The notes beneath the pieces are model-generated. The model was given only the letters and a program-made list of their open reading frames with translations, was not told where the DNA came from and did not search any database. From assembly GCA_903813345.2 (NCBI GenBank), contig CAIIXF020000006.1, forward strand, positions 868,001 to 932,000: 64,000 bases of DNA. Direction: 5' to 3'. A program made the translations under genes and the position numbers. How positions within the stretch are numbered: the stretch's first letter is position 1; each line of letters starts with the position of its first letter. This DNA comes from Owenia fusiformis. Its lineage: Eukaryota; Annelida; Polychaeta; Sabellida; Oweniidae. Of this stretch, positions 13,149-55,300 are shown piece by piece.

Positions 13149-13202
13149 TCATGCAATAGTAACCATCAACATTTTTACTCTCCTCTACAATCGCTCATAA
13201 TG
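13149..13202 (+). other. candidate 5' exon of LRR receptor, copy B (ends in ATG)
   Basis: Same sequence, splice signals and terminal ATG as 1241-1294, and the same reasoning applies. Confidence 0.35.
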
Positions 13203-13632: not shown

Positions 13633-13780
13633 CCTCTTTGGTTCTGTTCTAATGCGAATAAATTGACGACACCCACCACATCTCCTAGTCGTTGTTTAAA
13701 GTTGGTGCCACAAGAACCAGGAAACAAAGCAATTCATTGGTGAAAGAGCAAACATAAAAATGGCATTTGACAAGATAGGG
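13633..13780 (+). other. candidate alternative first coding exon (MAFDKIG), copy B
   Basis: Duplicate of 1725-1872, ending in phase 0 before gtatgt. Confidence 0.3.
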
Positions 13781-23058: not shown

Positions 23059-23687
23059 AGGACAGGTGGCGGTAAACCCCTCTTTTAGCCCCCCTACAAA
23101 ACAAGTATATATTGACATGGAATTGAAGAGGAAGTATGACTCATTACTTAAAATGTGATTTCTGAGAGTTTTGACATTTGACCTTGACACTAGGGTGGTT
23201 TAAAGGTCAACTTTGAGAGTTGCTATTTTTGTCAAAATTTTACTGTTTCTAATCCAAGAAATGAAAGCAATTGGCTTTATATTGATTGTGACTGATAATA
23301 AGACATGTGAATGGAAATAAAAATATTTTTAATGAATTATCACGGGCAATTACCTGAAATCTTGAGAATAAATGCCGATATGGGCATTTTTAGGGGGACT
23401 AAATTTTCTTGTTTCAAAAATGAATGTACTTGTTGCCTTTTGAGACTCTAACAGTATCCTAAGCATGTTTCAAGAGTTGGGATGTGATTATTATTATTTT
23501 AAATGCCCATGGGCAATTAGGATAAAATGACTGCAATTAAATGCTCACAAGGGCACTTCAAAAATAATGGATTTTCTTCATTCAATTGCTTCTCGCCAGT
23601 TTTCCATATTTCCATGTTTGCCATATTCTAAATAGTTATAGGGTCACTTTTACTAAATGCCCATTGGCATTTGGCGTTTTATCTGGC

Positions 23688-31248: not shown

Positions 31249-31300
31249 ATGCCTTGGGGATTCCAAACTTGCGGGCCTAATGAGGCCATGGTGGTGTCAG
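31249..31300 (+). CDS. FLOT1: flotillin exon 1
   Basis: Encodes [18 protein letters not shown], with the last glycine split after its first base (phase 1). [11 protein letters not shown] is the conserved flotillin-1 start. The N-terminus has three residues more than human. The donor is gtaag. The start is the only ATG that gives the family N-terminus. Confidence 0.95.
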
Positions 31301-34300
31301 GTAAGACCTAAGTATATATTTCTAAATTTGAGCTTAAAATCATGTAAATCAAATTTGATTTCCTTATGAATAATGTGCATCAAATTCTGTTCCCCAAAAT
31401 ATATATGAAAAACAAGTTGATTTTTGGGATTTTTCAATATATTCCTCCAAGAGTCGTCTTCTTGATATATTTATACATAATCTATAAGAATTTGATAGTT
31501 TATTAACCAATAATTAGGAAAATATGTTACTTTTGTATATACATACATTGGCATTCAGTTAAACAATATTACGTAACACTTGACTCTTTCTCATGATTCA
31601 CCCTCATTTGCAGGGTGTTGCGAAAGTGATAGCAAGCCACAGCTTATTCCTGGTGGTCGTGTTTTTGTATGGCCATATGTGCAACAGATTCAAAAGTGAG
31701 ACCCCAGTGGGATATTATAGTCGCCCATGTGCATTCTTGATTTGTAGGGTTTTTAAATGTGCTTGGCTATTAGTGGACGATATATGTCACGATATAGGGT
31801 AGAGATTTTTGGGTTTTTATTTTGTGCTACTTTTGGACTTAGAATAAAATTTAAAATGACCAGGCATCAGGGACAGATTCAAAAAAAATTAGAACAGGAC
31901 TCGATCAAAAGAGTTAACGTATAGCATAAAATGTACCCTCTTTCAAAACCAACACAAATGGCGAAAAGTAGCACTTTTCCAGAAAATTAAAAGAGTCCAG
32001 CATACAATAGATTTTCATACCTTTTTTCAAAACCAACACAAATGGCGAAAAGTAGCACTTTCCAGATGCCTTCCAGAAAATAAACAGAGTTTAGTCCAGT
32101 CTATCGATAGATTTTTATACCTTTTATCAAAACTAACACAAATGGCCAAAAGTATCACTTTTCCAGAAAATAAACAGAGTCCAGCATACGATAGATTTTC
32201 AAACCTTTTTTCAAAACCAACACAAATTGCGAAAAGTAACACTTTTCAGAAAATAAACAGAGTCCAGCATACGATAGATTTTCATACCTTTTTTCAAAAC
32301 CAACACAAATGGTGAAAAGTAGCACTTTTTCAGAAAATAAACAGAGTCCAGCATACGATAGATTTTCATACCTTTTTTCAAAACCAACACAAATGGCGAA
32401 AAGTAACACTTTTCAGAAAATAAACAGAGTCCAGCTTAGGATAGATTTTTATACCTTTTTTCAAAACCAACACAAATGGCGAAAAGTAACACTTTTCAGA
32501 AAATAAACAGAGTCCAGCATTCGATAGATTTCCATACCTTTTTTCAAAACCAACACAAATGGCAAAAAGTAGCACTTTCCAGAAAATAAACAAAGTTCAG
32601 CCTATCGATAGATTTTCATCCCTTTTTTCAAAACCAACACAAATTGCGAAAAGTAACACTTTTCAGAAAATAAACAGAGTCCAGCATACGATAGATTTTC
32701 ATACCTTTTTTCAAAACCAACACAAATGGCGAAAAGTAACACTTTTCAGAAAATAAACAGAGTCCAGCATACGATAGATTTTCATACCTTTTTTCAAAAC
32801 CAACACAAATGGTGAAAAGTAGCACTTTTTCAGAAAATAAACAGAGTCCAGCATACGATAGATTTTCATACCTTTTTTCAAAACCAACACAAATGGCGAA
32901 AAGTAACACTTTTCAGAAAATAAACAGAGTCCAGCTTAGGATAGATTTTTATACCTTTTTTCAAAACCAACACAAATGGCGAAAAGTAACACTTTTCAGA
33001 AAATAAACAGAGTCCAGCATTCGATAGATTTCCATACCTTTTTTCAAAACCAACACAAATGGCAAAAAGTAGCACTTTCCAGAAAATAAACAGAGTCCAG
33101 CATACGATAGATTTTCATACCTTTTTTCAAAACCAACACAAATGGCGAAAAGTAACACTTTTCAGAAAATAAACAGAGTCCAGCTTAGGATAGATTTTTA
33201 TACCTTTTTTCAAAACCAACACAAATGGCGAAAAGTAACACTTTTCAGAAAATAAACAGAGTCCAGCATAGGATAGATTTTCATACCTTTTTTCAAAACC
33301 AACACAAATGGCAAAAAGTAACACTTTTCAGAAAATAAACAGAGTTCTGTCTAGCGATAGATTTTCATACCTTTTTCAAAACCAACACAAATGGCCAAAA
33401 GTAACACTTTTCCAGAAAATAAACAGAGTTCAGCCCATCGATAGATTTTCATACCTTTTTTTGAAAACTAACACAAATGGCCAAAAGTATCACTTTTCCA
33501 GAAAATAAACAGAGTCCTGTCTAGCGATAGATTTTCATACCTTTTTCATAACCAACACAAATGGCCAAAAGTAACACTTTTCCAGAAATTAAACAAAGTT
33601 CAGCCTATCGATAGATTTTCATCCCTTTTTTCAAAACCAACACAAATTGCGAAAAGTAACACTTTTCAGAAAATAAACAGAGTCCAGCATACGATAGATT
33701 TTCATACCTTTTTTCAAAACCAACACAAATGGTGAAAAGTAGCACTTTTTCAGAAAATAAACAGAGTCCAGCATACGATAGACTTTCATACCTTTTTTCA
33801 AACGTAAAGGCTAGAGTACCGACAATTGTCGGTACTCTAGACTCTGATGTGGTGGCACGCTAGAGGACCGACAAATAAATTGTCGGTACGGGAGATATGC
33901 TGTGTTTACACGCTAGAGGACCGACAAATATTGATTTTCGAATTTTCTGGCGCATGCGCAATGCGCGGGGGGATATTTCAGATATCATACGGATATTTTG
34001 GGAACAAGTGCAAAACCCGGGGAGGGCATTAGCCCCGGTTACCCGGGGATTACCAAACCCAGGTCAAAAAATGGTAGCCCGGGAACAAGGAATGTTAGTA
34101 AACGTTGAAAGGCCCAATAAAAAACATGAACAAGTAAGACGTTAGAGAGCTATTAATGCAGAGTAAACGGCTATATATATTCTAAACAGATAGGATATTT
34201 CTCCTGAGCCGATCATGCGTAGAAAGGGGCGTTTGCTACCCATTAGATAGAAGAAAATAGCTAGAATGTTTTCTATTTGAAGCTTATGGTATGAGGTTCC

Positions 34301-37300
34301 ATATCCATCCGCCAAAGGGTATATAGTCCATTTAAAAACCTGTGGTATCGTTCTAAATAATTACCCATAGTTGGCTTCTAGGGTACCTAGTATGCCACTA
34401 TTTGGTGTCAAAATAAAGAGGAGTTCAACTTTCATTTTAATTACGAAAATAGCGATGTAGGTCAAAATAGTTCCGAACGTGAGCATGTTTACTACGCGTT
34501 TGCCCGTCATATCAGAATTGAGGAAGTGGTAGCAAACGCGAGTTACAATAAACGGACGCTGATATCTCAAAAAGTAACCTGACTCCCTATAATTTGATGT
34601 AGGTCAATCGAACCCCTATATGGACAGGTGCATTTTGATATATAACACTATGGGGGGTAAGCGTTTCATAGTTGGTCACGAACGCCATATGTGCAAAGTA
34701 TTGTTATGAATTTGGTGTTGGATTACGGTACTCATACCTTATAGCACAATTTTTGATGGAAGTTGCATTTGGCTCCCTTAGTTTATGGCCACGATTCCAT
34801 CTCGCATGAGAGAGCTACCAAACGCAAAGTAAACAGTGATATATTCCAAATGGGATATTTCTCTTGTGCCATGGCGTAGTAAGGGTAGAGAGCGACGGGG
34901 GCGAAAGCATCCCCTCCCCTAACTGTATATATCGACCCATTAGATAGAACAAGAAAAGAGCTTTAAAATGTTTTTTAATTGAAGTTTGTAGGACAATTTT
35001 GATGGAAGTTGAATCAATTTTTGTCGAAATAAATTATGGCTCACTACAAGTTAATGCCTGTACGATTCCATACTGGAAAAGAAGCACTATGTCCCCCTCA
35101 AAAGAAAAAAAGTAGGTCTTGCCGGGATTCGAACTCGGGACCGAATGTGTTCGAGTCGTGCTCGCTAACCACTAGACTACCAGTGATGTGGTTATTTCTA
35201 AAAGTAAAAGTAGTGGATTTATTTATGAAATTGTCGGCTCTCTAGCAAAAACACGTAGCAGCCACTTGCGTACCGACAATTGTCGGTTCTCTATCTGGCA
35301 CTACTAGTTGACGATAGAGTGCCGACGATTGTCGGTACCCCAGCAAATACCCCCGGACAGTCTCCAGTACCGACAATTGTCGGTCCTGGAGCCACTCCGT
35401 TTTTCAAAACCAACACAAATGGCCAAAAGTAACACTTTTTCCAGAAAATAAATAGAGTCCAGCCTATTGATAGATTTTCATACCCCTTTTTCAAAACCAA
35501 CACAAATGGCCAAAAGTAACACTTTTCCAGAAAATAAACAGAGACCAACCTATCGATAGATTTTTATACCTTTTTTCAAAAGGCCGTGGCTGGAGAGCCT
35601 TAAATATTACGGAGTGGCTCCAGGACCGACAATTGTCGGTACTGGAGACTGTCCAGGGGTATTTGCTGGGGTACCGACAATTGTCAGCACTCTATCGTCA
35701 CCTAATAGTGCCAGATAGAGAACAGACAATTGTCGGTACGCAAGTGGCTGCTACGTGTTTTTGCTAGAGAGCCGACAATTTCATAAATAAATCCACTACT
35801 TTTACCTATAGAAATAACTCTAGCCTTTACGTAAATATTAAGGCTCTTTAGCATTTTGGTAACCAATTTGGCTAGAGAGCCTTAAATTTTAAGGTTCTTT
35901 AGCATTTTGGCTGAAAGAGCCTTAAATTTTAAGGCTCTTTAGCATTTTGATAGCCAATTTCGCTAGAGAGCCTTAAAGGAATTCTAGGCGACAGAAATGA
36001 CAAAATATTGTTTCTGGGACAAGATCAAACGACTTTGACTATATTCTATACCCAACCTATTTTGTAATTTAACAATCAGCACAAATATACATACCATATT
36101 AGCAGATATCGGACAAATTCATAAAAAAATATTTTTTGATCGATAAAATCGCTGATTATTAAACCGGAAGTGTCTTCTCTGAGGTCCGCGAAGAAGATGA
36201 AGAAAACATATAAAGATTTCAGTCATTTCAAATTTGCCGTCGATTTGGTTTTAAATGGTTCTAAATTATCTTTGAATGCTTACTATGACTTCTATAAGTA
36301 CTGTTTTGACTTCCCCACTTCATAAAAAGAAGATTATCACCTTTTACTCGACTCATAAATTTACTTCCGGTCTACCGAGAAAAATAATAGTTTGAACCTT
36401 TTCAATCCTCAGTCAAGATTTGAAAAAAAACTTTTTGTTTATTTTCTGGAAAAGTGCTACTTTTTGCCATTTATGTTGGTTTTTAAAAAAGGAAAGAAAA
36501 TCGATATATACTGAAGGCTGGATAGTTTGAACCTTTTCAATCCTCAGTCAAGATTTGAAAAAAAACTTTTTGTTTATTTTCTGGAAAAGTGTTACTTTTC
36601 GCCATTTGTGTTGGTCTTGAAAAGGTATGAAAATCTATCGATAGGCTGAACTCTGTTAAGTGTTACTTTTGGCCATTTGTGTTGTTTTTGAAAAAAGGTA
36701 TGAAAATCTATCGTATGTTGGACTCTGTTTATTTTCTGGAAATGTGCTACTTTTGGCCATTTGTGTTGGTTTTGAAAAAAGGTATAAAAATCTATCGTAT
36801 GCTGGACTCTGTTTATTTTCTGAAAAGTGTTACTTTTCGCCATTTGTGTTGGTTTTGAAAAAAGGTATGAAAATCTGTTGTATGCTGGACTCTGTTTATT
36901 TTCTGAAAAGTGTTACTTTTCGCCATTTGTGTTGGTTTTGAAAAAAGGTATGAAAATCTATTGTATGCTGGACTCTGTTTATTTTCTGAAAAGTGTTACT
37001 TTTTGCCATTTGTGTTGGTTTTGAAAAAAGGTATGGAAATCTATCGAATGCTGGACTCTGTTTATTTTCTGAAAAGTGTTACTTTTCGCCATTTGTGTTG
37101 GTTTTGAAAAAAGGTATAAAAATCTATCCTAAGCTGGACTCTGTTTAATTTTCTGAAAAGTGTTACTTTTCGCCATTTGTGTTGGTTTTGAAAAAAGGTA
37201 TGAAAATCTATCGTATGCTGGACTCTGTTTATTTTCTGAAAAGTGTTACTTTTTGCCATTTGTGTTAGTTTTGAAAAAAGGTATGAAAATCTATCGTATG

Positions 37301-40300
37301 TTGGACTCTGTTTATTTTCTGGAAAAGTGATACTTTTGGCCATTTCTGTTGGTTTTGAAAAAAGGTATAAAAATCTATCGATAGGCTGAACTCTGTTTAT
37401 TTCCTGGAAAAGTGTTACTTTTCGCCATATGTGTTGGTTTTGAAAAAAGGTATGAAAATCTATCGTATTCTGGACTCTGTTTATTTTCTGAAAAGTGTTA
37501 CTTTTCGCCATTTGTGTTGGTTTTGAAAAAAGGTATGAAAATCTATTGTATGCTGGACTCTGTTTATTTTCTGAAAAGTGTTACTTTTCGCCATTTGTGT
37601 TGGTTTTGAAAAAGTTATGAAAATCTATCGAATGCTGGACTCTGTTTATTTTCTGAAAAAGTGCTACTTTTCGCCATTTGTGTTGGTTTTGAAAAAAGGT
37701 ATGAAAATCTATCGTATGCTGGACTCTGTTTATTTTCTGAAAAGTGTTACTTTTCGCCATTTGTGTTGGTTTTGAAAAAAGGTATGAAAATCTATCGTAT
37801 GCTGGACTCTGTTTATTTTCTGAAAAGTGTTACTTTTTGCCATTTGTGTTGGTTTTGAAAAAAGGTATGAAAATCTATCATATGCTGGACTCTGTTTATT
37901 TTCTGGAAAAGTGATACTTTTTGCCATTTGTGTTGGTTTTGAAAAAAGGTATGAAAATCTATCGATAGGCTGGACTGAACTGTATGTTTTTTAAATGCCT
38001 GGTCATTTTAAATTTTATTCTAAGTCCAAAAGTAGCACAAAATAAAAACCCAATAATCGCTACCCTATATTGTGACACTGATGTAGTGGACAGGTCAAAT
38101 ATGTTCAAGTTGAAAGTGAAAAGTGATTTTGTTAGGGTTGGGTAAAAAATTTTCAAAATGCTGAAGATAATCAAGTGTTTCCTTTTACTGTCATATCATG
38201 TTTTTAAGTTTTATATAGTTATTATAAAGGGTCTAATTCTTCCCGAGATTTTAATGTACTTCCCCCCGAAAACTGAGTGAAATTTGACCTGGCCTTCTAT
38301 TAGAAATGCATGATTCTCAGTTGTTTTTAGGTGGTTAAAGGTCTCGTCTCCCCGCTGGATTTTGTTTTGACCATCATCTTATTTATTGTATTGCTAGGTT
38401 CACTTTGTGAAAGTCTGGTACCAAGAGGTTTATTTTCCTTAACATTTACTAAACATTTGCAGAATAAGTTCTTTATTTTGTTGGGTTAAATTGTAAATGC
38501 ATTTCAACTTTAAATTCCTTTCATTTGCTATTATACATGTTAGAATATGCTCAAATTTAACTTCTCCAGGCCGACTTTTACAGATTGAAATGTATGTTGT
38601 AACATTATTTTGTTTATAATATATATTTTATCATTCATTTCAGTGTCAGCATTTTGGCTGAATGTAAACTGTCTTATATCTGGTGTAGGCTTTTTCTATT
38701 GTAGCATGGAATACAGATACGTTCATCTTTATCAATCATTTATTATTTTGGGTGAAAAAAGTGAAAAAAGTTTATCATATATTTTCTTAAATGTCTATAA
38801 GCAATAGGTATGGTAACAGTTATATACATAAGACACATTAAACAACAAGCATTATATTTATCAAATTTATATAATTATCCTGGATTGAGGTATTTAGGAA
38901 ACGTTTAATTAACTTGACAGGATGTTGCTATTCAAGTCCTCTAATGATACCTGGTGGGAGGGTGTGGGTATGGCCAGGTGTGCAACAGGTCCAGAAGTGA
39001 GTTAGCGAAAAAGCATGAATAATGACCAACTTGAATATGTTTTGTTCATTTTGTTAAGCATCGCTTCAGCATTATTGAATTGGTCTGGATGCTAGAAATA
39101 GAACATGTTTGATATACAGTACTGTTTTGTCCAGTTGATAGAAAAGTTCTGCAGCGCACTACTAATTAGGATTTGGTATTCACCAAATGGAGGGTTATGC
39201 ACTGTTTCACTTTTTACACTGGATGAAGTATGTTTGACACCTCGTTCCATAGATTCTAGGTTGCTTCTCCCTCAAAATCCTCCCTAGAAAAGAAGAATTA
39301 CAGAGATATTTATTTCAGTTGAATGCTATATGTCTAGGATAACTTATATTTCTCAAGTCCATAACGGTATTAATTTTTTTGTTATTGGTTAAGCTAGCTG
39401 GCCTGTTGGATATTGCATTTTTGTACTATGGAGTCAGTCTGCATTACATGTTTTACATTGTTATTACCATTCTGTCTATTCTGAAATCCAATATATCAGG
39501 GCAGATGACCTATTATAGATCCTGTTATATATTAGTCGTTATAATCAGTTTGTGCATTAGACAGTCTCTCTTCATATCAAAGTTTGTTTTAACTGGATCC
39601 ATTTTTTCATTTCTGTATTCCTGATTGATGTTCCTTTTATTATTTGCTAAATGTGCCTATGTTAAAACTTATTTCAAATCAAAGATGGTCGACCAACTTG
39701 TCAAGGAAAGTCTTAGAAATCTCTTAATATCTTTCACCTTTCACACATAATTGCAAATGCATACAAACAGGCACCAGCTACCAGGTCCCTTGGTTGGTAA
39801 TGTTTTATTAATTATTGTTCTACCAATGGCAGATTTCCATACACTCTTTGTGGTAAACAAAATTGGTATTCTCTTCATGAAATGAATTATGTTTTACTGA
39901 TGAACGCTATAAACTATTTACAGGTATACCGTAACTATTATTACTTAGATTAAGCATGTATGCTGTAGACTATTACCCAAGTTAATCCATTCTCTTTATG
40001 ATTATCTGAATTATTTGTTTAGCCTAATGTATTGCTTTTTTAGGTTCCTGATATTTACTTTTTGTTGTCTTTTAAATGTTTTTTTTCAGTTATTATGTTA
40101 AAAGTTAAAGAATAAGAGGAGGGACATTTTGTGTTGATTTATAGCTAGCTTGTTTTTTATTATTTTAAATGAGTTGTCTTCTTTTCAGAGATTTGGTGTT
40201 AGTATACAGTTGTACTTTTGTATAAAATGTCCCTATCTTTTCTTAAATTACGTGCGTCATTATTAAGTATCCATGTGCACTGCTACCCACCTAATTACAC

Positions 40301-43300
40301 AGACGTATCGTCGGTGTATCATGGTGGAACTTCCTCCGGGACTAGGTTTCGGTACGATTTTTTTATTTCCCGATTTACACCTACTTATAAGTCACGTTGT
40401 GGATAATAATTTGGCTCGAAGTTAAGGAAGATAGTCTAGTTTGAGAATGTGTCGATGGTTTTAGGCTTTATATGTTAACAAAGACACAATTCACGTATTT
40501 AGTCCCTCGCTTTTCTTACACTGACGAACGACCAATATCAGTGTAATATTGGCAATATTAATGCCGATCGTCAGTATAAGAAAAGCGAGGGACTAAATAC
40601 GTGAATTGTGTCTTTGTTAACATATAAAATCTAAAACCATCGACACATTCTCAAACTAGACTATCTTCCTTAACTTCGAGCCAAATTATTATCTACAACG
40701 TGACTTATACAGGGTGATCAATAAATAAGGTAAAAGTATCTGGCATTTCTTCAAATTTTACCCAATCCTTATGAAATTTGCACAGAATAATGTTCAAACA
40801 TTATTGAATTGATATATTAACTTACAGATCAAAGTGATGTGATTGGTTGAAGTTATAGTTACCATAGCAACAGAAAGCATGCAGACCCGGGGCAACTATC
40901 AAAAAACTAAATTTTCAGTCAAAACACTTTTGATAATATATTTCAAATCACAATTAAAATGGCATATCATATTATTTTTTCATACTTCATAACTGCTACT
41001 TAATGTCCTTTGTTTTTAACATATAGTTCATGTCTTCTACTCCAGTCTTTGAACACCTTTTAAACCCATTTTCCCATAGCGTGCAAATTTTCAAGACAGC
41101 TGGCTTCAAGTCATCCCATGAGAAACTCTCTCAACTCCCTCTTCAGCTTACCATGACGGTAAAATCATATGGGGACAAGTCAGGAGAGTATAGTACATGA
41201 CCTAACAGTGGGAAACCAAGTGCTTCAATGGTTTGTACCGTGAGAATAGCATTGTGAGACGGAGCATTATCCCATGTTATGTGAAACGTTTTGCAGGCCT
41301 CTTAGTCTTAGCTTCTTTCTCTTTTCTCTCATCAAATCTCTTCTGTGGGTATTGCTTTTCATCATTGACCTGTCTCATAGACTTTCTATGATCACATCAG
41401 TTTTCATTATATATTAATCTTTCCCGTGACATCAAGCATCGAATTTGCAAGACAATATGTAACATGTAAACAAAGTATTAAAGCAATTAATGCTGGCACC
41501 CACATTTATTTCTTTTCTGTTTGAAAAAGATGTGCATTTTATCATTTTTTGTTCAAATTGGACGCAATGAAATTGCCCCGGGTACCCCCGACTCCAGTTG
41601 CCATAGTAACTATAATATTAACCAATCAGATGGCAGAAGTTATATATTTATGTTTTAATTTAGAAATGTACAAGGTATATTCTGACCAAATTTCAGGATG
41701 TTTGGACCAATATTTACAAAATGCCAGATACTTTTACCTTATTTATTGATCACCCTGTAAGTAGGTGTAAATCGGGAAATAAAAAAATCTTACCGAAACC
41801 TAGTCCCGGAGGAAGTTCCGCCATGATACACCGACGATACGTCTGTGTAATTAGGTGGGTAGCAGTGATGTGCGTTAATATTATTTATTTATTCAAATGA
41901 TAAAACCAGGAAGTAAATATATGAGGTATTTTTATACACGGTAAACATCTATGAAAGAGCACTCTTAGCACTCAAGCAAAATGTTTTTATGTACAGGGTG
42001 GGCCAAAAAAAAGTTCACCCTTTTTCATTTTAATCTAATTTTCTTATTTTTGATGCAATGCCTCTAAAAATTTATATGTATATAGCTCAGACATTTCTAT
42101 ACATGTTGTTAGGATTTGAGTGAAATTTATGCAACAGTGTTGTCATGACACCTAAAATATATTTATGGTGTGTCATGAAAAAAAACCAGAAATTCAAAGA
42201 GGAGGGAAAGCCCCAGAGTTTCAAGATGACAGACATAATTACCTCTCTTGCTTACCACCTTCGTTCGTTCGAATTTTCATCGGCTAGTTATCAAATACTA
42301 CACTTCGATGGGATGTTATAATTGATATAGGCATATTCCGTATACCTTTCTTTATCTTGATGTGAAATGAGAAGCTATGATATTGGTTAACACGCCAGAA
42401 ATGAACATAATATTATTCGAAGCGTATTTCGAAAATTTTGAAACCGCCATTGATGACGTCATTTGTTTGTCGACTTTTGACCAATCAGCGACCGTGTCAT
42501 CTCAATACAGATTTACATTATAAGCATATGTCATCTTTGAACCCTGGTGTTTCTCCCCCTCTGAGAAATTCACTTCATTTACAAAATGGCGGATTTCAAA
42601 AAAAGGAGGGAAATTTGAAAAGAAGTTATCATGGTAAATATAATTTTTATGTCAGTTAATGCAAAATATTACAAAGTAGAGTGTTAATTAATAGTCAGAG
42701 TTGATGATAAACACCTCTTTAAACAATTAAGTACTTTTATAAACACCCGATACTACCATAGATGAGTTGGTCAACAAGTTACTGAAAATCCATGGTATTA
42801 TCCAATTTTCCTCATGGTATCTGCCGGCGTATCTAAATTGGGAAAAACTAGAGTAACATTTGTTCAACCTGGAGCCAAAATGAATTCTACATACTATATA
42901 GACAGAGTGCTAAAAAAGTCTTTATTAAAGGATATGAATCGCATCAATCCAAACTACATATTCCAACAAGATGGGGCTCCCTCGCACACATCTAAAGCGA
43001 CAATGGAGTTCTTGCATGCCAATGCACCTGATTTTATCCCCCCTGACTTATGGCCCCCAAATAGCCCTAATCTCAATGTTATGGATTATTTTGTGTGGGG
43101 TGAACTAGAAAAACATGTTCATAGTGTTCCCATCCATTCAGTTCAAGAACTCCAACAAAGAATAACTTTATGTTGGGAACAATTATCACAACAATCAATT
43201 AACACGGCAATAAATAAATGGCGTCATAGACTAAAACTGGTTGTGCAGGAACAAGGAGGACATATTGAACATTTACTTTAAAAACAAAACAGCCAAAGAC

Positions 43301-46300
43301 ACACCTAATGTTATATATCGACCTTGTTTAGAAATGTCTCAGTTATCTACATATCAATTTTTTAAGGGATTGCATCAAAAATAAAAAAAATGAGATTAAA
43401 ATGAAAAAGGGTGAACTTTTTTTTGGCCCACCCTGTATATATGTACTTTAAATTGTTCAATGCATATTACATACCTGTATATATTTTTCCTGGTGTTATT
43501 TTTGTTTAATTATTATCAGTAGTGAAGCATGATTCTAGTTTGCCTACACATAAAACATTTTATAGGTTGTTGTCATGGAAAACCAGAATTAGTAGCTGGT
43601 GGCAGAACTTTTGTTTGGCCTTGTATCCAACGTGTCCAAAAGTAAGAGCACACAATTGTGCTACACAGTGTGCTGAATGAAAGCAAAGTGTGCTACATAA
43701 TCCTTGTTCTAATATTTTAGTGTGACATCATAATAGTCTTGGTGCTACATTTATGTGTTACATATATTTAGTTTATTGAGAGTAGCATGCCTTATAATTT
43801 TCCAGGCTGTTGTCATTCTAAACCTGAAATGATTGCTGGGGGTAGAATTTTTGTATGGCCAGCTATACAACGTGTCCAAAAGTAAGAACACTGCACATTA
43901 TACTAGAATATGTGCTTGTTAACAATCGCCTGATATGAGAGTACACAGAAGCTTGTACTAACTTGGAGTCATGCAGCCCAGATGATGCATGTTGCTAGGG
44001 TACATGGGCATGGGGCTGGGATATGTAGGCCAAGGTTTTTCCATTCTTTATGCTCTGTCAGGAGTAATGTGCTGTTTTTTGGTGGTGTATGAACTGTATA
44101 TATCTTTTCATTATTATATCATCAAGATGTGCCATGTAAGTTAGGTGAAATTATGAATTACAGGATGTTGCTATTCAAAACCTGAGCTTGTTGCTGGTGG
44201 TAGGATTTTTGTTTGGCCTTGTATACAACAGCTTGATAAGTAAGTCCTGCACATTGTGCCATTCTAGGTGAACATTGTGCTACACAGGATGCTCAGTATG
44301 TTATACAGGGTGCTGAGTTATAGTTTTAGGTGTTGTGCTATATTTTAATCTTCACACACATAGTTCTCAGTTTTTGTTATCTCTGCTGTTGTATTTGAGA
44401 TTTTCTGTAGAAAACAGAACTCTTCAGTAATTAGGATCCTTGTTTTAGAGACCACGTGGTCCTTCTACTGATGGTCATTCTGGTGTGTTTCATCATTCCT
44501 TCACATCTTGTGTTGTAGAATCACATTTTTTGTATTTGTCTATTAAGTCACAAAGCATGGACTTTCTCTGTCTCTAGTCCATTCTCAAAAGATTGTTAGA
44601 ATTGTTTTATTTTTTTATTTTATAGTCTATTGTTAGACTTATGATTGATAAGATATATATATATATAAGATATAAGTTTGGATCATGTTTAATCATTATC
44701 GGAACAAAGAGGGTTTCTGATTTCTCTGGTTGTTGATTTGTGTTTATAAAGCTGTGTTTAATTCTTTCTTCTTTTCTTTCAGTTCTTGTATACTGCCTTT
44801 GGTACCTTTTCGTGTACTTCATTTGGTACCTTTTCGTGTACTTCCTTTGGTACCTTCTCGTGTACTTCCTTTTGTACTTTGAGTTGCATTTGGTTCCTCA
44901 AATCAAATAATGTGTTCTACCAAGAATTATCACTTATAAGTTTAACTGATGTACTTAACTTTTTCTCAACTACTCCTGTTTATGTGCCTTGTATAATCTA
45001 AATTGTCATTAATTCTTATAACTTATTGATTTAACTTCTTACTTTACTTGCAACAATTCATTCTTTATCCTGAATCTTGCTTGAATAATATGCTAGAATT
45101 GATGGATACTAACATGTAATATTTTAATGAGAAATTAATTATTCCCATTAAACCCCTCCTCCTAAACAGATGTCCAGAATCCGTACCTCTTTCTTCCCCC
45201 CCTTTTAATAATCAATTTGGAAGCACCCGATTAAACTGAATCATGTGATCTTATTATGCGCAATGACTCGCAGTGTTGCGACAGCCAATCAGATTGCGAG
45301 TTCTTAATCGGGGAAATTCTAACTGCTTATTGCAGGGGGTAAAAAGAAAGAATATATTCTGGATTTTGAAGCCCTGTGATCGAAGGTTGCATTAACCCAG
45401 TTCATATTATTAAATTAACATGTCTTATTTTCTTTACTAGAAGTATTTTTACATGTCATATATGCGGTTGTTGGTGACCAGCTACATAATATTGTCTTTA
45501 AATATAGTAACTCTCATTACCAGATGTATTGTAAGGATTTTCTTCCCTAAAATTAAATATATGACTACCTTATACTTTATTATACTTAATGTATAATGTT
45601 CTAACCTGTACTTTTACCAGAGAATCTTCTTAGATATCTTGACTTACTTGAGTAACATTATATGTAGTATTGCACCAGTTTCTATGGTCCTCCACTCGTT
45701 ATCTTGTTCAAGAAATATTATTTGGTATTAGAGGGTAGGTTGTGACCAGAGACTTGTTGCAATACTATTGTAGAGGGGACTATGGACTAACATAGCTTAA
45801 GCTTTTTGTTCTGCCCTATACAGTGAAACATGTATATAAACATCTCTTTAAGTCAGACATCGTGAATTGAAACATTTTGGTGTTTAGTTAATCTAAATTG
45901 AACATATGGACTGATTATCTCAGTTTCATTTTCTCAAAAATCTAACAACAAGAAGCTAACAACATTTAAGTCATTAAGTTATCTGTAAAATAGAAACAAA
46001 AATATCAGAATATCACACATTTCAAGGTGAGAGGTGTTTTCATACATTTATTTCACTGAACTTATACTTATATATTCATTATGTTGCATCTAGCCACTAA
46101 CCATCATACATAGTTTTCACTGGACATATTCCTTGTATTCATTCTGTTGCATCTAGCATGTTTCTCTTATACATTGTACCTGGCAGGAGTTTGTTATTCC
46201 AAGCCCAGTATTATCTATGGGGGTGGCAGCGTATGGCCTCTCCCATGTGGCATGCAGAGGGTAGATAGGTGAGGTCCCCAATATGAGAACCCCTACCCTT

Positions 46301-49300
46301 TCTTATCTAGAGACAGAATCCCCTCCAGTAAATTATATATGAGCCATTTTTGCTGACCTCAAAACATTTTACAACATTGGTCGACTCATATGAAGCATGT
46401 GACCAATTTTTGTTTTGCTTTTGACTTAAATATTTTATCAAATGTCATAGGACATTATATTATAGTAAGATGGCTTATACGTATTTACATGTTATAACAG
46501 TCCCCTCAGTATATACTTTAAATATATTTAGTTTTTCTACTTGCTTCAGCTTTTGTTTAGGCTTTGGCTCTACTTTGATTTGTTTTATCTTGCATGGCTG
46601 TCAGCTTTGCTATGCTTTTTGTCAACTTTTCTGTGCTTTTTTGTTAGCTTTGCTGTGCTTTTGTCGGATTTACTAATGCTCTTTTATACTTTGTCAGTTT
46701 TACTAAATGCGTTTTCAGTTTTGCTATGCTCTTTTGTCAGCTTAATTTTGCTCTTTTGTAAGCTCTGCTCTGCTTTTTATTATCAGTCTTGCTTTGCTCT
46801 TTTGTCAGATTTGCTGAGCCTTTTCAGATCTGCCGTGCTCTTTTGTAAGTTTTGCTTTCCTCTTTTATTAGCTTAGCTGTACTCTTTTGCCATCTTTGCT
46901 GTGCCTTCATCTGTTCATCTGTGATTCTTATATCGGGAAAAGAGGAGATAAAGATACACATCGATGATCTAGTTCCATTGATTTTGTCACATTTTTTCTG
47001 ATATTCCGACTGTGGAGGGATTGGTCATTGTATCACATCTTGGGTCGATCACTCCATTTGTTTGTTTACCTGTCTCTAATTCTTTACAGTTTGTTCATGT
47101 ATATTCATAACTGTGGTCTAGTCTTCATTGTAAGGACAACATAAATTAGTGAACATGTATTCTGAGGAACAACATGTATATTTGCATAGTTTTCAGGCTT
47201 AAAACACATAATGTTAGAATCCAGGAAATAAATACAGATTATTAGGGTATATTGTCTAGGCCCGACTTTGGAGGGATTGGTCATTGTAAAAGATCTTAAA
47301 TAAGTTACGTAGGACAGACTGGATTAGGACAAAAAACTGAGATAGGAGTCACTCGAATATAACATTAATCATATTGGCGAAGATAATGCTATTAACAGTT
47401 TTAAAGCTTCTATAGAAGCTAAGCACTTAACTTATCAGTGTTCTCCCCCAAAAAAATTTTCAACTGGGTGCAAGATTTCAAGTCTGAAAAAATCAGCACT
47501 CGCTACGCTCACAATATCTCAGTGTAGGTGCTTCACTCATTTTTCAAATCAGAAGTTGAAGTGCAGATTCCAACTGGGTGCCAACTGGGGGGCCTTTGGT
47601 TTCAAGTAGGGGGTGCCCCCGGTAAAAGTGACATGGGGAGATCACTGCTTATTCATTTAAAATTGCATGTGGAAAAATTAACACTGAGCATTCATTTTGA
47701 CTAAATTTAAAAAAATGTTATGTTTTTATTTACCATATAGTCATGAGTTTTGACATGGTTTTAAATTATTATTACTTTTTACCAATGAGCCTTTACTGTT
47801 ATATATCAGGCCTTAATTTTGTTACCTGATAATTTGTGAAACTCACTTCGAAAATGCAAGTGTAGTCAGGATTCCAAGTGATATTTCAAAATGGATGCTC
47901 TCCATTGCTCAGTAATCTGTGTTCTCACATTTGACTGCTTTCAAAATGCTTTAAAACACAAATACAGATTTTCATTTTTAGTTCATCCCACATCATTTTT
48001 TGGAGAGATTGTCACACTTCATAAACTATGCTTTAGCATGTCAATTCATATGTACAACATTATGAGTTGTACTTTGTGGTTATATATGTTGTCTATTGCT
48101 GCATGCATATATTGCCTTGTTATATTATATGTTGCATTGGTGCATACGTTGTCTTCTATATGTTGCCTGTTGCTATGGTTGTCGTAATTGTTTGCCTATA
48201 GGAATGTGTCATGGTAAACCCACCACAGTAATAGCTGGGAGAGCTTTTGTTTTCCCTTGTTGCCAGCAAGTTAATAGGTGAGATGTGTATCCATGGTTAT
48301 GGTCAGGATTTATAAACAGCAAAATGGTGTATTTGGTGTTTCTGTACATACATATATGAACAATGCAAATGTCATCATTGTAGTCCATTCTCACAATCTG
48401 AAAACCTGATAGAAATTTTTATATAATATTATAATATTGGGGCAGTAGAAAATAGGGTGTCAACCTAAAGGTCTAATACGCACCCTGTCATCATTTTCAT
48501 CGATCTTAACAGGGTTCTCTTCCTTGCCATTATGAGTTGGACTACCATCAGAGGGGGAGAAACCCCAGGGTTCAAAGATGACATACGCTTATAATGTAAA
48601 TCTGTATTGAGATGACATCGTCGCTGATTGGTTTAGCGAGGCGATCGTTGATTGGTTTAAAACCAGGTCAATTTGAAAACTTTGAAAACCAAGATGGAGG
48701 GTAAGTACTTCCGGGAAAGGAGGTGCGCGAAGGAGGAAATCGTACATCATCAATTGAATCATGGGGTTTTCCCTCTTACTACCATGGTGCTCATATGATT
48801 GTTTTGTTTTATGTACACAAACACCATCTTCTGAAAAAATACTTCAACTAAAAAATGAGTGGTGTGTACACTACATTTAGAATCAGTACTTAAACCCATA
48901 ACATAGAGAAATGTTGTGGATTTACTAACACATTCACTTCTAGATTTTCATTTCTTCCAGCTTAATATATAGATCTGCATGAATTGAGTGGTCTTGCGTT
49001 AATATTCTTTCGTAGATGTATAGATATGTTGTATATACTGTAGTTATTACTATTGTGAATATATTTGTACGTAGGAATGTGCCATTCAACTCCGACAACA
49101 ATTATTGCGGGCAGGGCTTTTATCTGGGGTTGTTGTCAACGGGTAGATAGGTGAGGTACCAACACAAGAATAAAACTCAACACCCTTCTCTCTCTCATCT
49201 TCTTGAGTCAATTTTTATAAACATCGTAAAATTCTTGATTCATTTGTCTTATTTGTCTAGTACTATTTATCATCAATTGGAAGAACAGTTGTAAAACATG

Positions 49301-52300
49301 TATCAATAACTTTATGATGTTTCTGACATTGATCCTTGATATTCATGTAAAATAGCACGTGGGAATCAAACATTTAAGCTATCCTCCCTTTCACATCCTA
49401 TAGCTGTAAAGTATCAGAAACCACCCCTTTCCCCTACACGTAACAAATCCATCAGATAGCTGAGCTGGACATCAGCTTTAATCCAGCACCTTTTTCTACA
49501 TAGAGGGAACGTAGAGTTCGCATAATCATTCATACTTTCTACTGTTTCATCTTTATGGGATCTAATTGCATTTCACACAGTTAAAATAAATATTTCTGAC
49601 TAAAAGATTCACTGATTGCATTCTTATACTCCTGACATCGCCTTTATCTCACAAATGACATTCTCTGAAAAAATTGCCATTTTATATCATGGTGAGATTA
49701 TTGCTCCAATTTATGGCATTTTGAACTGTGCAGTTGGCATATTTTATATCTTTGGCTTCATCTTAGGTTGTGGGAATGCTAAACCCAACTTGGTTCATGG
49801 AGGGACAACTTTTGTTTGGCCTTTTTGTCAACAAATTGATCGGTAATTCTTGAATATGTTCAGTTTTATTAGTATAATCCAATCAGTTGAATTGTTTATT
49901 ATGCAGTTTTTTATGTTAAGAATTGTAGAACAGTTAATATCTGTTCAATTGTTAAATTTTTAATTTGAAGGTAACTCAAGAAAGATAACAATTAGTTTTG
50001 TTTGAAAAAGTTCACTTTTATAAGACTTTAAACTTGAAATACATGCAAAGAATTCATTGTGTTTTTAGCAAAAGGGCAATTTTTTGCCATCTGATCTGTC
50101 AAATGTTGAGTCATATCTCAGTCATAATACAGAATTCATCAAATCTATTGATAGTTTGCAGCATTGCAGTTAGCGTTATAATTATCCAGACCTTTACATA
50201 CAACTCTTGGATCTGGATCAATAATAGAGCTATCTGCCACTAAAATTAACCTAACATTATAACATTATTGGGGTTCTGCTTAAGATGGATGTTGTTGATT
50301 AAATACAAGTATTCCATTTGTAGTAAGGCATAGGTTCAGAGGAAATATCAGGGTTTTCAATATGTCAGATTCTCCCATCTGTTTTCATCCATGTTAATCT
50401 TTATATGCATTATAATAACATTTCTCTGCATGCATAATTGCCTTATATTACAGTACTAGTCTACCTATTAATATAACATGCATACTTTTCTGCATATATT
50501 CCTGAGGATATCCTCACGTTTAATATAATCCCTGCTACTTTCCTTTTCTATTGGTGTTCTTTGCGTCTTTTAGTAAGTTCAAGCAAACCTTTTCTCCCCT
50601 TTTAATTAAAGTACATTTTATATTAATAATTAAGGTAAAAAGTATAGCTTGAAGATTCATGTATATGTACTGTGAAACATTTGAAATCAAGCAGTATAAG
50701 GTTTGTGCATAGATTTACTTACGTTTGGTTCTAATCTAAATTGTATTTATGGTAACCTACCCAAATAATTAGGTAAGTTGTGAAAATTGGTTTGTTTCAG
50801 AATTAATTTTTGGTATTCATAGAATTTTATCAAAATAATTTTTATTGGAAAGTAAAATGATTGCTTAAGGTTTATTTTAATAAAACTATTTGTCTTGTAA
50901 TTTTCAATAGATTGCCTAATCTGTTTTATATGTTGTTTTTATATTTACATATGTAATTTGAAATTATTTTATATTGAAATCATTTTATATGCTTTTGTGA
51001 AAATAATATAATTTTCTTAATTAAATCTATTGTATACCAAAGTTAACCCAAAGTTAACCATATATAATATCCTATTTGTAAGATAATTGGAATAAAAAGA
51101 ATAAATATCACTAAATGTATACAGTTTTTAAGACATAACAGCACATACTATACAAAATATATGATCAGCATTCCATTTCATATTGTGGTTGTATTTTTAA
51201 GGATCTCGCTGAACACAATGACATTGACCATTGAGAGCCCCCAGGTCTACACACAGATGGGTGTGGCTATTTCTGTCACAGGTATTGCACAGGTAAGTTA
51301 TTGTTGTGCATTCTGTAACCTGTATGTATTCCCCCATTGGGGGGGGGGTGTGCTCTAGGGTCTCAATGAAGGCCTTCATCACTATGAATTAGTTGAACAT
51401 AACTTGACCAAGAGATGAAGTCTTGTTTTTGCTGATAAAATATAACAATGGTGGAATTTATGTGGGTTCCTCAGAGTTAATGTTGATATCAATAGATGGG
51501 ACTGAAGTCGCATACTTTCTGAACTTTTTTTGATAAGAGTGAAAAAAAGCTGTTACTTTACTTCCAAAACAATGACAATATTTAATAATATTTGATAATA
51601 TTTTTAAAAAAGTCTTACCATTTATTTGCTGTATTGTAGCATAATACACATAGTTTTTTTTTATTTAGGTATATTTATTCAACATACACTGTGTTCTCCC
51701 TGACTGAAAAATGCGTGGCGCTCGCGCCACGCACATTGTGGCTGCGCCACGCTGATTTATTGCGCGCCACACATTTATTAACAGCGCCACGCATTAGACT
51801 TTGACAGAAAAATTTCCCAAAGTGAAAATAGAAATTGAAAAAAATCAAAGTTTTAATCACATCAAAATCTCAGCCCGTTTTGCTTGAAAACGATACAAAA
51901 TGCTCTATGTAGATAAAGAAATGTCTGTACTTACCTTTCTTGCACTAAAGAATCTTCAATTTACCTTCTATTTTGATAAAAAACAGTTTGATTTGCACAG
52001 AAATGAAACATGTTTTTTCTCAAAGGACTTACAGCCTCCGATTTTGAAGAGTACACTGAACGAAAATGAACATGTGTGCACATTTTCCCGGGAATTTCGG
52101 ACACAATAATTATAGTTGAATTATATTGAAGAAATATGTGGCCACATACTGAAAATTATTTTGTATATTGAACTTTATATTACAGGGTGGGCCAAAAAAA
52201 TTTGCAACCTTTTTAGAAGGCAAAAAAAGTATTATAACATTATGGTATTGACATGAAATTTTTTTTACAGAAACTTAAGGATAGGCATATTTTACCATTT

Positions 52301-55300
52301 AAATACTTAAGCTAATACTGACATCAAATTTTTTTGTCAGATGTTTGAATATTAATGGTAAATTGTTCATTTGTCCGAGATTTACCATTTTCCGAGAAAA
52401 TCGGACTTTCTATGATTTTATGTGATCAACAATAACACATTCATTATGTTTACTAAATCTGCTACAATCTTTGATAACTGTTTAACAAATGTCTAGTACA
52501 GGTTTATATCAGGATCTAGTCACTATGGTAATATTGTTACACTGTATTAATTTTTTATTAAACAAATGTTCTATGCATCCGCCTTTCACCTTAACAATCA
52601 CACGGAGACGAGAACTGAACTGGTCAATGGCGAGATCCAGCAGTTCTTGTGGTAGTCGTCTCCACTTATCCTGCAGAACTTCTTATAGTTGATCAATAAT
52701 TTGTGGGGTATAACCATTAACTACAATACATTGCTCCAGGTGCCCCCATGTGTGATAGTCCCAGGGGTTGGTATCTGGTGTATTGGGTGGCCATTCGACT
52801 CAGGATTAATCTTCTTCTAAAGGGACATCTTTCAAGAATGGGGGCTCTTTCAGCCCCAAGTGATTACATATTCCAGCAGGATAGCGCTCCTGACCATAGG
52901 CCAAAAGTCACTATGGAATATCTGGAGCAAAATACCCCTTGATTCATTAGTCCTGATGAATAGCCGCCTAATACACCATTTAACAAAGATTGCAGCAGAT
53001 TTAGTGAACATAACAAATGTTCTATCGATGATCACATAAAATGATAGAAAATCACATTTTCTAGGAAAATCGGTAAATCTCTGACACATGAACAATTTAC
53101 CATTAATATTCAAACATCTGACAAAAAAATTTGATGTCAGTATTAGCTTAAGTATTTAAATGGTAAAATATGCCTATCCTTAAGTTTCTGTAAAAAAAAT
53201 TTCATGTCAATACCATAATGTTATAATACTTTTTTTGCCTTCTAAAAAGGTTGCAAAATTTTTTGGCCCACCCTGTATATTATGGAAATAAATATTAAAT
53301 TGAACATTGAATTAAAACAAACCTCTGAGCATTTATATTGCAACATGGCCTATTGTCATTAAAGTAGATGATTATACAGTGCTAAATTTCATTTGTTTTG
53401 ATGTTATGTAATTACATAACATAAAAGCAAATGTTTAGCATATTTATAACAATGGCCTTCAGGACTGTCAATAGATGGCGAAAAATTCAGTAGGTTTAAT
53501 AGCATACTTTAACATGTAAAAAATGTTCCAAAAATCTCCCAAGATAAATTTTATTGGAAATATCCGAAACTTCTAATTTTGAATCTTAAAACATGTTTGT
53601 AAATAATGATGAAGGAAAATATGATATTTATTTGATATATGTAGAGAATTTGAAGTTTCAAAACAGCAATATTTACACATAAACAAATGGGCCAGTTGTG
53701 GAGAACAACCTAGTAGTTAAGTGCCATCTATACGAGTCCTGGCTCCCATTGGCTGTTGATGCAAATGATTGTGATTAAGTAACGCCGCAAAGCGGCGCCG
53801 ATTTTTTTTAAGCACGTTTTTGTAAACTTATCACCACCCTAATAATTTTGCCGCCACCCATCAATTTTTATTCAAACTTTTTCACCACTCACTTTTGAAA
53901 AATTAGGGAGAACACTGATACACATGCATGATTCTGTTAATTTTAGGTGAAAGTTCAAGGTCAGAACAAAGAAATGTTGGAACATGCATGTCAGCAGTTC
54001 TTGGGCAAATCCGAGCAGGAGATTCGTAAAATTGCCCATGAGACACTTGAGGGACACCAGCGTGCAATCATGGGAAACATGACTGTTGAGGTTGGTATCT
54101 TTTGCTAACTTTTGGCTTCTATGGTTAGCCGATAAAATAGTTTGCCTATCCATCCTTTTATTCCTGAGCTCTTCAAGATGAATACTTTCTCATAAAAAAC
54201 ACTTTATACTCAATGTTGAGACTTCAATCATTGAAAGTTAGTTCCAATGTGAAATTTTCTGTTTTATCTAAAGTTTAAGATTAGTTTTTCACAGTTGACT
54301 TTGTTCTCATTTGTTGTACATTTTCTTTTGTGCGGTGTCATTGTTAAAGCATGTTGGAAATCAGTAATGCATTTGATTGCAAATGTTCAATTTTCATAAA
54401 AGCAAACAATTCTTCTCAAATGATGATATATTTTTTAGGAAATTTACAAAGACCGTAAGAAGTTCTCCAAGGCTGTGTTTGAAGTTGCATCATCAGATCT
54501 GATTAACATGGGAATCAGCGTGGTGAGCTACACCATCAAGGACATCAGAGATGAAGAGGGCTACCTGAAGGCTTTGGGTATGGGAAGAACTGCCCAGGTG
54601 AAGCGAGATGCCAGGATTGGTGAGGCTGAGGCTAGACGAGATGCTGGTATTAAGGTAAAGATGTCTTGAGTGGTTTAGAAAATAGTAATAGACAGTAATA
54701 CTTGTCATTTCACTATACAAGCCAGAAAAATCGTAAGGGTTTTGTCAAGCTTGTAACAGAAATGCCTAATAAATAACCTCAAAGCTGAGTCTTTTTCCTA
54801 TTTGTATGCAGCCCTGTATTTTTACTATTTGCACTTCATTTTGGGCAAGTGTGCTTATATGCTCCCCTGGCCTTTGTAGGTTTGTATTTCATGCTGATCT
54901 TAAGATTTAAGTATCTACACAGCATGATATATTATCGATATATTTGAAAATTAAACTTTCTAAAATCAGATCATTCAAGATCAAATTGTTAAGTCTTAAT
55001 TCCATCCTCTAGGAAGCTATTGCTGAGGAACAGCGTATGGCAGCCAGGTATGCTAATGATATTGACATTGCCAAGGCCCAGAGGGACTTTGAGCTGAAGA
55101 AGGCCCATTATGACATGGAGGTGCAAACTAAAAAGGCAGAGTCGGACCTGGCTTATTCTCTGCAGGTAATGAAGAAATTAGATTTTCTTGGTATTGTATG
55201 TACATAAAGGTTACTCATTAGGTGAAATTGTATATGGGTTTCATTATGAAGGACATGATATCTGACTGAGAAAAGCTCATATCATCCGAAAGGGTAAAAC

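What the first reader, a model, noticed from the sequence alone, without database searches (positions are those of the whole stretch)
31614..49842. Alternative exons switch the flotillin palmitoylation site on and off
Vertebrate flotillin-1 is palmitoylated at Cys34, in PCIQQ (established knowledge). The aligned residue is Cys in exons 2.3, 2.5 and 2.6 (single Cys) and in 2.7 and 2.8 (adjacent Cys pair). It is Tyr in 2.1, Gly in 2.2, Ala in 2.4, and Phe followed by Cys in 2.9. Versions 2.3 and 2.4 are close relatives that differ at just this site. Choice of exon could therefore set acylation and membrane residence, giving a splicing-coded anchor. An additional CC pair near the segment start also varies.
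Basis: partly seen in the sequence, partly recalled or inferred. Interest (0 to 1): 0.88.

Follow-up and report, generated by a model that had tools for sequence, protein, structure and literature searches.

The report
Nine swappable flotillin-1 membrane segments
In the marine worm Owenia fusiformis, one gene for the membrane-scaffold protein flotillin-1 carries nine interchangeable versions of the short exon that touches the membrane, and they differ in how many fat-attachable cysteines they hold and where, so splicing could tune the lipid anchor, although it probably does not simply turn it on or off.

Summary
The window holds a flotillin-1 gene of the annelid Owenia fusiformis: a spliced isoform (cassette 2.8 + exon 8b) is identical to the public Owenia protein. 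Nine exon-2 cassettes lie at 31614-49842; a profile scan found no tenth. Each is 1 mod 3 in length with AG/GT borders, so 9 of 9 single inclusions keep the frame, against 0 of 1 skip, 0 of 36 doubles and 0 of 84 triples. The residue aligned with human Cys34 varies as stated, except that 2.6 is ambiguous (indel) and that 2.3 and 2.4 differ at 5 of 26 residues, not one.

The 'on/off palmitoylation switch' is only partly supported. Position 34 is the most variable residue of this exon in the homologs sampled, and Cys is a minority state (10 of 104 unique peptides). Every cassette keeps 2-3 cysteines. What changes is their placement: 2.1-2.5 keep the widely conserved Cys16-Cys17 pair; 2.6-2.9 lose one of that pair and carry Cys near 34/35. 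Lingula isoform models also swap Cys/Gly at 34. I infer splice-coded tuning of the membrane-inserted face of SPFH1. No transcript or acylation data were available. A second alternative pair (exon 8a/8b) gives 18 possible isoforms.

The parts
31249..31300 (+). flotillin-1 exon 1 ([17 protein letters not shown] + first base of Gly), holds the Cys aligned with human Cys5
   Evidence: tblastn and identity with P0001; 5' splice site gtaaga
31614..31695 (+). cassette 2.1, 82 nt, [28 protein letters not shown]: Cys16-17, Tyr at 34
38921..38996 (+). cassette 2.2, 76 nt, [26 protein letters not shown]: Cys16-17, Gly at 34
43566..43641 (+). cassette 2.3, 76 nt, [26 protein letters not shown]: Cys16-17, Cys34
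43806..43881 (+). cassette 2.4, 76 nt, [26 protein letters not shown]: Cys16-17, Ala at 34
44164..44239 (+). cassette 2.5, 76 nt, [26 protein letters not shown]: Cys16-17, Cys34
46187..46268 (+). cassette 2.6, 82 nt, [28 protein letters not shown]: Cys17 only of the pair; Cys in an indel near 34
48202..48277 (+). cassette 2.7, 76 nt, [26 protein letters not shown]: Cys17, Cys34-35
49075..49150 (+). cassette 2.8, 76 nt, [26 protein letters not shown]: Cys17, Cys34-35; the version in the public Owenia protein
   Evidence: exact match to P0001
49767..49842 (+). cassette 2.9, 76 nt, [26 protein letters not shown]: Cys16, Phe34, Cys35
51202..51292 (+). exon 3 (one version found here; alternative in Lingula and several mollusc models)
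53947..54090 (+). exon 4
54439..54654 (+). exon 5
55013..55165 (+). exon 6
55503..55684 (+). exon 7
57018..57063 (+). alternative exon 8a, 46 nt ([15 protein letters not shown])
57753..57798 (+). alternative exon 8b, 46 nt ([15 protein letters not shown]), the version in the public Owenia protein
58547..58684 (+). exon 9
60448..60612 (+). exon 10
60794..60823 (+). exon 11, end of the reading frame (SMKMAQRRV stop)

Best explanation
This is a flotillin-1 gene of Owenia fusiformis (the only one found in the assembly) with nine mutually exclusive versions of exon 2 and two of exon 8. Exon 2 encodes residues 15-40, the membrane-inserted face of the SPFH1 domain. Shown from sequence: nine intact cassettes; a reading frame that, among combinations of zero to three cassettes, stays open only with one; fewer amino-acid than silent changes between all cassette pairs; and two layouts of cysteine. 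One layout has a Cys16-Cys17 pair with position 34 free (2.1-2.5, Cys34 in 2.3 and 2.5). The other has a broken pair with Cys at or near positions 34/35 (2.6-2.9). Inferred: the cell includes one cassette per mRNA; wrong combinations are shifted out of frame and discarded; the choice sets the number and place of acylatable cysteines and the nearby aromatic and hydrophobic residues, so that flotillin cages (22 flotillin-1 chains each, as in the solved human complex) differ in how they sit in the leaflet. This is tuning of the anchor, not an on/off switch, because no cassette lacks cysteines and position 34 varies freely among animals.
For: Frame test: in frame for 9 of 9 single inclusions, 0 of 1 skip, 0 of 36 doubles, 0 of 84 triples, 12 of 126 quadruples. 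Each cassette is 76 or 82 nt with AG/GT borders. Nine hits against shuffled maxima of at most 10 bits. pN below pS in 36 of 36 cassette pairs, e.g. 2.7/2.8 pN 0.19 and pS 0.82 while both keep Cys34-Cys35 (raw proportions, no formal test). Exact match of 2.8 + 8b to the Owenia protein P0001; 18 of 18 single-by-single isoforms in frame. Lingula X1-X3 versus X4-X6 differ in exon 2 with Cys versus Gly at 34 and are identical in the core compared. Cys at 34 or 35 in 5 of 9 cassettes (2.6 counted as without) against 11 of 104 unique homolog peptides (Fisher p 0.003, not corrected for relatedness). SPFH1 is described as the part inserted in the membrane and carries the acylated residues (passages). 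22 flotillin-1 and 22 flotillin-2 chains in 9l3g.
Against: No RNA evidence that more than 2.8 is ever used. P0001 is an annotation, and the Lingula isoforms are database gene-model names. No acylation data for any invertebrate flotillin-1 were found in the passages read. In human flotillin-1 Cys5 and Cys17 are predicted sites without experimental confirmation. The link between loss of the Cys16-17 pair and gain of Cys34/35 is weak outside Owenia (3 of 12 broken versus 8 of 92 intact, Fisher p 0.11). A search for a shared docking RNA element was negative. Introns of 164 nt or more and the lack of U12-type donors give no structural reason for exclusivity. 12 of 126 quadruple inclusions also stay in frame.
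Confidence: 0.55

Rival explanations
1. The array is a real set of alternative exons, but the Cys/non-Cys difference at position 34 is drift at a tolerant site. What selection keeps is other membrane-facing or partner-facing side chains (22, 25, 29, 34, 37), and acylation is not regulated by it.
For: Position 34 has the highest entropy of the exon in homologs (2.81 bits). Residues there include G, V, I, C, T, S, A, F, W, L in 158 homologs. Only 10 of 104 unique peptides have Cys34. Every cassette keeps 2-3 Cys.
Against: Cys at 34/35 is over-represented in the array (5 of 9 versus 11 of 104; cassettes are related, so not independent). The Cys34-Cys35 pair is kept between 2.7 and 2.8 although synonymous sites are saturated. 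Lingula models also have a Cys/Gly pair of versions.
Confidence: 0.3
2. Literal first-reader switch: Cys34 is the sole acylation site, so cassettes 2.3, 2.5, 2.7, 2.8 (and 2.6) are anchored and 2.1, 2.2, 2.4, 2.9 are not.
For: Mammalian flotillin-1 is described as palmitoylated on Cys34 only, and C34A is intracellular in several cell lines (PMC7177705 passages).
Against: Lacking Cys at 34 is the common state in the homologs sampled (94 of 104). A Cys16-17 pair aligned with acylated Cys19-20 of flotillin-2 is present in 2.1-2.5. 2.9 has Cys35. Contrary localisation data and no effect on detergent solubility are reported for C34 alone. Flotillin-2 partners would still anchor the cage (inference).
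Confidence: 0.1
3. Several cassettes are dead or unproductive exons: splicing of extra cassettes feeds nonsense-mediated decay and sets the level of flotillin-1 rather than its anchor.
For: The skip, the doubles and the triples put a stop early in the mRNA. Only one cassette (2.8) is seen in a public Owenia protein.
Against: All nine keep open frames and splice sites, and pN is below pS, which dead exons would not keep.
Confidence: 0.05

Closest known systems
Flotillin-1 (reggie-2) of animals, e.g. human FLOT1 (PDB 9l3g, 9bq2)
   Same: Aligned over nearly the whole chain, 602 bits to FLOT1 against 373 to FLOT2; same SPFH1 segment; four of the cassettes have the Cys34 of human FLOT1.
   Different: Human exon 2 is single (recalled) and has Phe16-Cys17; Owenia has nine versions, five of them with a Cys16-Cys17 pair.
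Lingula anatina flotillin-1 isoform models X1-X6 (P0007-P0009, P0012, P0014, P0015)
   Same: Two exon-2 versions, one with Cys and one with Gly at position 34, identical in the core compared.
   Different: Two versions not nine; also three exon-3 versions, where the Owenia window shows one. Several mollusc models vary exon 3 alone.
KRAS4A/KRAS4B mutually exclusive last exons (PMC9882654, a preprint; passages)
   Same: Duplicated exons chosen by splicing decide whether a palmitoylated Cys is present.
   Different: Two exons at the C terminus beside a farnesylated CaaX box; here nine near the N terminus in a membrane-inserted fold.
CDC42-palm/CDC42-prenyl (PMC9868626 passages)
   Same: Alternative exons change a lipid anchor (CCIF versus CVLL).
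   Different: Changes the type of lipid at a C-terminal box; only two forms.
Large tandem arrays of mutually exclusive exons (Dscam, recalled; muscle myosin heavy chain, title and abstract start in the listing)
   Same: Tandem homologous exons in one phase, one used per mRNA.
   Different: Those change other surfaces, such as ligand or motor parts (recalled); this one changes a membrane-inserted, acylatable segment. No docking-site pairing was found here.

Membership tests
Flotillin-1 | Band_7/SPFH domain plus flotillin C-terminal domain | tested here: met
   PF01145 79.3 bits and PF15975 30.5 bits, both above cut-off, on P0001, which equals the window's 2.8 + 8b isoform. The NCBIfam model for bacterial-type FloT matched below its cut-off (392.6 of 700 bits)
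Flotillin-1 | Closer to flotillin-1 than flotillin-2; separate flotillin-2 gene in the genome | tested here: met
   602 against 373 bits; flotillin-2 on G000:C12, about 14.55 Mb
Flotillin-1 | Palmitoylation at Cys34 | not testable with these tools
   Cys34 present in 4 cassettes, absent in 4, ambiguous in 2.6; no acylation data
Mutually exclusive exon cluster | Tandem homologous exons of one phase between the same constitutive exons | tested here: met
   nine cassettes, phase 1 to phase 2, 76 or 82 nt
Mutually exclusive exon cluster | Reading frame compatible with single inclusion and broken by skipping or doubling | tested here: met
   9 of 9 singles in frame, 0 of 36 doubles, 0 of 84 triples, 0 of 1 skip; 12 of 126 quadruples are also in frame
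Mutually exclusive exon cluster | Transcripts show one exon at a time, several used | not testable with these tools
   no RNA data; one annotated protein uses 2.8
Mutually exclusive exon cluster | Known enforcing mechanism: docking/selector RNA pairing (not required for membership) | tested here: inconclusive
   no signal: best mean z -0.94 and -0.72 lie within the shuffled minima; one genome, 12 shuffles, low power
Mutually exclusive exon cluster | Known enforcing mechanism: too-short introns or U2/U12 mismatch (not required for membership) | tested here: not met
   shortest intron 164 nt; no U12-type donor at any of nine cassettes
Splice-coded lipid anchor (works like KRAS4A/4B, CDC42) | Alternative exons differ in presence or place of acylatable Cys | tested here: met
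   Cys positions by cassette
Splice-coded lipid anchor (works like KRAS4A/4B, CDC42) | Isoforms differ in acylation and localisation | not testable with these tools
   needs bench data

The most novel reading that the evidence does not exclude
Owenia flotillin-1 uses a splice-coded anchor code: nine exclusive SPFH1 segments place two or three acylatable cysteines over two sites (16/17 and 34/35), and mixed isoforms within one cage of 22 flotillin-1 chains give cells a graded, combinatorial setting of membrane grip and domain choice. Exon 8 choice adds a second axis (18 isoforms), and related lophotrochozoans use exon 3, or exons 2 and 3, in the same way.
Probability: 0.3. Interest if true: 0.82.

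Novelty: new variant of a known kind. Interest (0 to 1): 0.6.

Why it matters
I found no description of exclusive-exon diversity in flotillin-1 in the open-access library searched (listings; one paper opened in part, concerns human FLOT2 isoform switching). If the cassettes are used, a natural series of nine SPFH1 membrane segments on one unchanged scaffold makes an open question directly testable: what the membrane-inserted, acylated face of flotillin does, and which cysteine matters. It also shows that the textbook Cys34 is a minority state in the animal flotillin-1 proteins sampled, which bears on how far mammalian palmitoylation results can be carried over.

Tried and rejected
Rejected: chance or pseudo-exons (nine hits far above shuffled scores; pN below pS in 36 of 36 pairs). 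Not supported: a second flotillin-1 copy (of 13 genome matches, 10 lie in this window and 3 at the flotillin-2 locus; only best candidates are scored). Not supported: the same array in flotillin-2 (one exon-2 hit in the 19.9 kb fetched).

Led nowhere: search for a shared docking RNA element against shuffled flanks (approximate shuffles, 12 of them, and the upstream flank of 2.4 reaches 36 nt into cassette 2.3); Rfam on 31000-61500 (0 matches); region search for relatives of cassette 2.7 (only P0001); structure prediction never started, because the machine was busy at each of five requests, so no model was made.

Weak result kept as weak: association of a broken Cys16-17 pair with Cys34/35 outside Owenia (3 of 12 against 8 of 92, p 0.11).

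Limits of counts: homolog tallies rest on the 158 proteins listed by two searches (best 120 each, of 4655 and 5668 passing). Many come from related species, some are isoforms of one gene, and no vertebrate name appears in the two lists. In one search peptides identical over the 26 human columns were merged (insertions ignored), the Owenia protein was dropped and human FLOT1 added, giving 104. One search's 105 unique peptides include Owenia and not human; the table (106) includes both. In one search, 11 of 36 pairs had saturated synonymous distance under Jukes-Cantor, so no ratio is given for them; the other 25 ratios run from 0.13 to 0.78; the pN below pS statement uses raw proportions.
Full report
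What is there. The + strand of the window from 31249 to 60823 carries one complete flotillin-1 gene. Exons were located by translated search with human flotillin-1 and refined at splice sites. Between exon 1 and exon 3 lie nine versions of exon 2. A profile of the nine peptides plus human FLOT1, run on all six frames of the 64 kb, finds these nine (42.8 to 69.5 bits) and nothing else near them (next 4.6; five Markov-shuffled windows at most 10.0). The nine helped to build the profile, but they were found before it by tblastn.

Which organism. The best database match is an unnamed Owenia fusiformis protein, P0001. The window isoform made with cassette 2.8 and exon 8b is identical to it over 430 residues, so the window is Owenia fusiformis (Annelida) or indistinguishable from it here. 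In the assembly (498 Mb, 525 contigs) 10 of 13 matches to flotillin-1 lie in this window and the other 3 at a flotillin-2 gene on another contig.

Why the cassettes look mutually exclusive. Each is 76 or 82 nt, phase 1 to phase 2, hence 1 mod 3, with AG and GT borders. The frame stays open for 9 of 9 single inclusions, 0 of 1 skip, 0 of 36 doubles, 0 of 84 triples and 12 of 126 quadruples. pN is below pS for 36 of 36 cassette pairs; 11 pairs are saturated at synonymous sites and the other 25 have dN/dS from 0.13 to 0.78. For example, 2.7 and 2.8 have pN 0.19 and pS 0.82. So the cassettes look old and kept by selection, though no formal test was made. A second alternative pair, exons 8a and 8b (46 nt each, 24 of 46 bases alike), also fits only one at a time: both or neither breaks the frame (tested with 2.8), and 18 of 18 single-by-single combinations are open.

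How exclusivity is enforced is not known. The shortest intron between cassettes is 164 nt and none of the nine donors is U12-type. A scan for a common docking element in the first or last intron was within the range of shuffled controls. My working view (inference) is regulated splice-site choice, backed by frame-shift and decay of wrong joins.

What the cassette does in the protein. It codes for residues 15 to 40 in human numbering. A review places SPFH1 (residues 1-43) as the only part inserted in the cytosolic leaflet, noting low resolution there (passages of PMC11775717), and the cryo-EM paper describes Trp and many Cys on the membrane-facing surface of SPFH1, some of them palmitoylated (passages of PMC11260169). 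The gene therefore varies the membrane-inserted face while leaving most of the cage constant. The human complex in 9l3g has 22 flotillin-1 and 22 flotillin-2 chains.

The cysteines. Human Cys34 aligns with Y, G, C, A, C in 2.1-2.5, C in 2.7 and 2.8, and F in 2.9. In 2.6 the Cys lies in an indel. The pair aligned with human 16-17 is CC in 2.1-2.5, VC in 2.6, MC in 2.7 and 2.8, and CG in 2.9. Cysteines per cassette are 2, 2, 3, 2, 3, 2, 3, 3, 2. None is without. In 158 homologs, position 34 is G 64, V 28, I 14, C 13, T 11, S 11, A 8, F 4, W 3, L 2; it is the most variable site of the exon (2.81 bits over unique peptides), while Cys16, Cys17 and Cys5 are present in 146, 154 and 149. Among 104 unique peptides with Owenia removed and human included, 10 have Cys34 and 11 have Cys34 or Cys35, against 4 and 5 of the 9 cassettes (Fisher p 0.013 and 0.003). 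A broken 16-17 pair occurs in 12 of 104 against 4 of 9 (p 0.022). None of these is corrected for relatedness of species or of cassettes. So Cys near 34 is more frequent in this array than elsewhere, but it is not the typical residue of animal flotillin-1 in this sample.

A parallel. Lingula anatina flotillin-1 models X1-X3 and X4-X6 carry two exon-2 versions, PCIQQ and PGIQQ, and three exon-3 versions, with the compared core identical. Among the 158 proteins fetched, 67 pairs have at least 98.5 per cent core identity and differ in exon 2, 3 or 8: 56 in exon 3 alone, 3 in exon 2 alone, 6 in both (these 9 are Lingula), and 2 in exon 8 (between scorpion species). The 56 are 6 Lingula pairs and 50 others, of molluscs where named (Sinanodonta, Potamilus, Haliotis, Mytilus, Bradybaena); they include pairs between species and two unnamed proteins (names). 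Alternative SPFH1 exons in flotillin-1 may thus be a lophotrochozoan habit, with Owenia the extreme case among those seen here. The Lingula and mollusc forms are gene-model names and not shown to be expressed.

What is known of Cys34. Passages of PMC7177705 state that mammalian flotillin-1 is palmitoylated on Cys34, that C34A is intracellular in several lines but that contrary results exist, that mutating Cys34 alone did not alter detergent solubility, and that Cys5 and Cys17 are predicted but unconfirmed sites. Flotillin-2 is acylated on Gly2, Cys4, Cys19 and Cys20. The Cys16-17 pair of most invertebrate flotillin-1 sampled aligns with Cys19-20 of flotillin-2 (alignment). That these are acylated is my inference.

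Verdict. The array is real and striking. The finding's residue list is right except for 2.6 and for the claim that 2.3 and 2.4 differ at one site (they differ at five of 26). An on/off switch is unlikely in the strict sense; tuning of acylation and of the membrane face is the best reading, at about 0.55. Precedents for splice-coded lipid anchors exist: KRAS4A/4B (passages of PMC9882654) and CDC42 (passages of PMC9868626). I found no paper on exclusive exons in flotillin-1 (searches, of which I saw listings; passages of PMC9205547, report isoform switching of human FLOT2 in sepsis, a different matter). The library lacks most subscription journals.

Noticed in passing
57018-57063 and 57753-57798: A second alternative exon pair (8a [15 protein letters not shown], 8b [15 protein letters not shown]), both 46 nt, fit only one at a time; the public Owenia protein uses 8b.
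   Followed up: yes
about 1-11900 and 11909-23800: Near-perfect tandem duplication of about 12 kb (99-100 per cent in most 1-kb steps, at offset 11908 before about 4 kb and 12007 after), the shift being one unit of an internal 99-bp minisatellite.
   Followed up: partly
31934-33802 and 36658-37976: Two arrays of the same 83-bp minisatellite in opposite orientation, both inside the 7.2-kb intron between cassettes 2.1 and 2.2; the transcript could form a long hairpin there.
   Followed up: no
42766-43281: Partial DDE transposase frame (PF13358, 29.4 bits, cut-off 28.6; mariner-like by recall) in the intron between cassettes 2.2 and 2.3.
   Followed up: no
L009 (G000:C12:14555000-14564900), minus strand, 3571-3621 and 1725-1817: Owenia flotillin-2 shows one exon 2 and begins MGNIHTVGPNEAL: Gly2 is kept but the main palmitoylation Cys4 of human flotillin-2 is Ile; the Cys19-Cys20 pair is kept.
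   Followed up: partly
P0088, P0099, P0101, P0108, P0111 and others: Several insect flotillin-1 forms carry a Cys at human position 37 (WPTIQCVQR; 10 of 158 proteins have Cys there), so the Cys wanders along this segment across animals.
   Followed up: no
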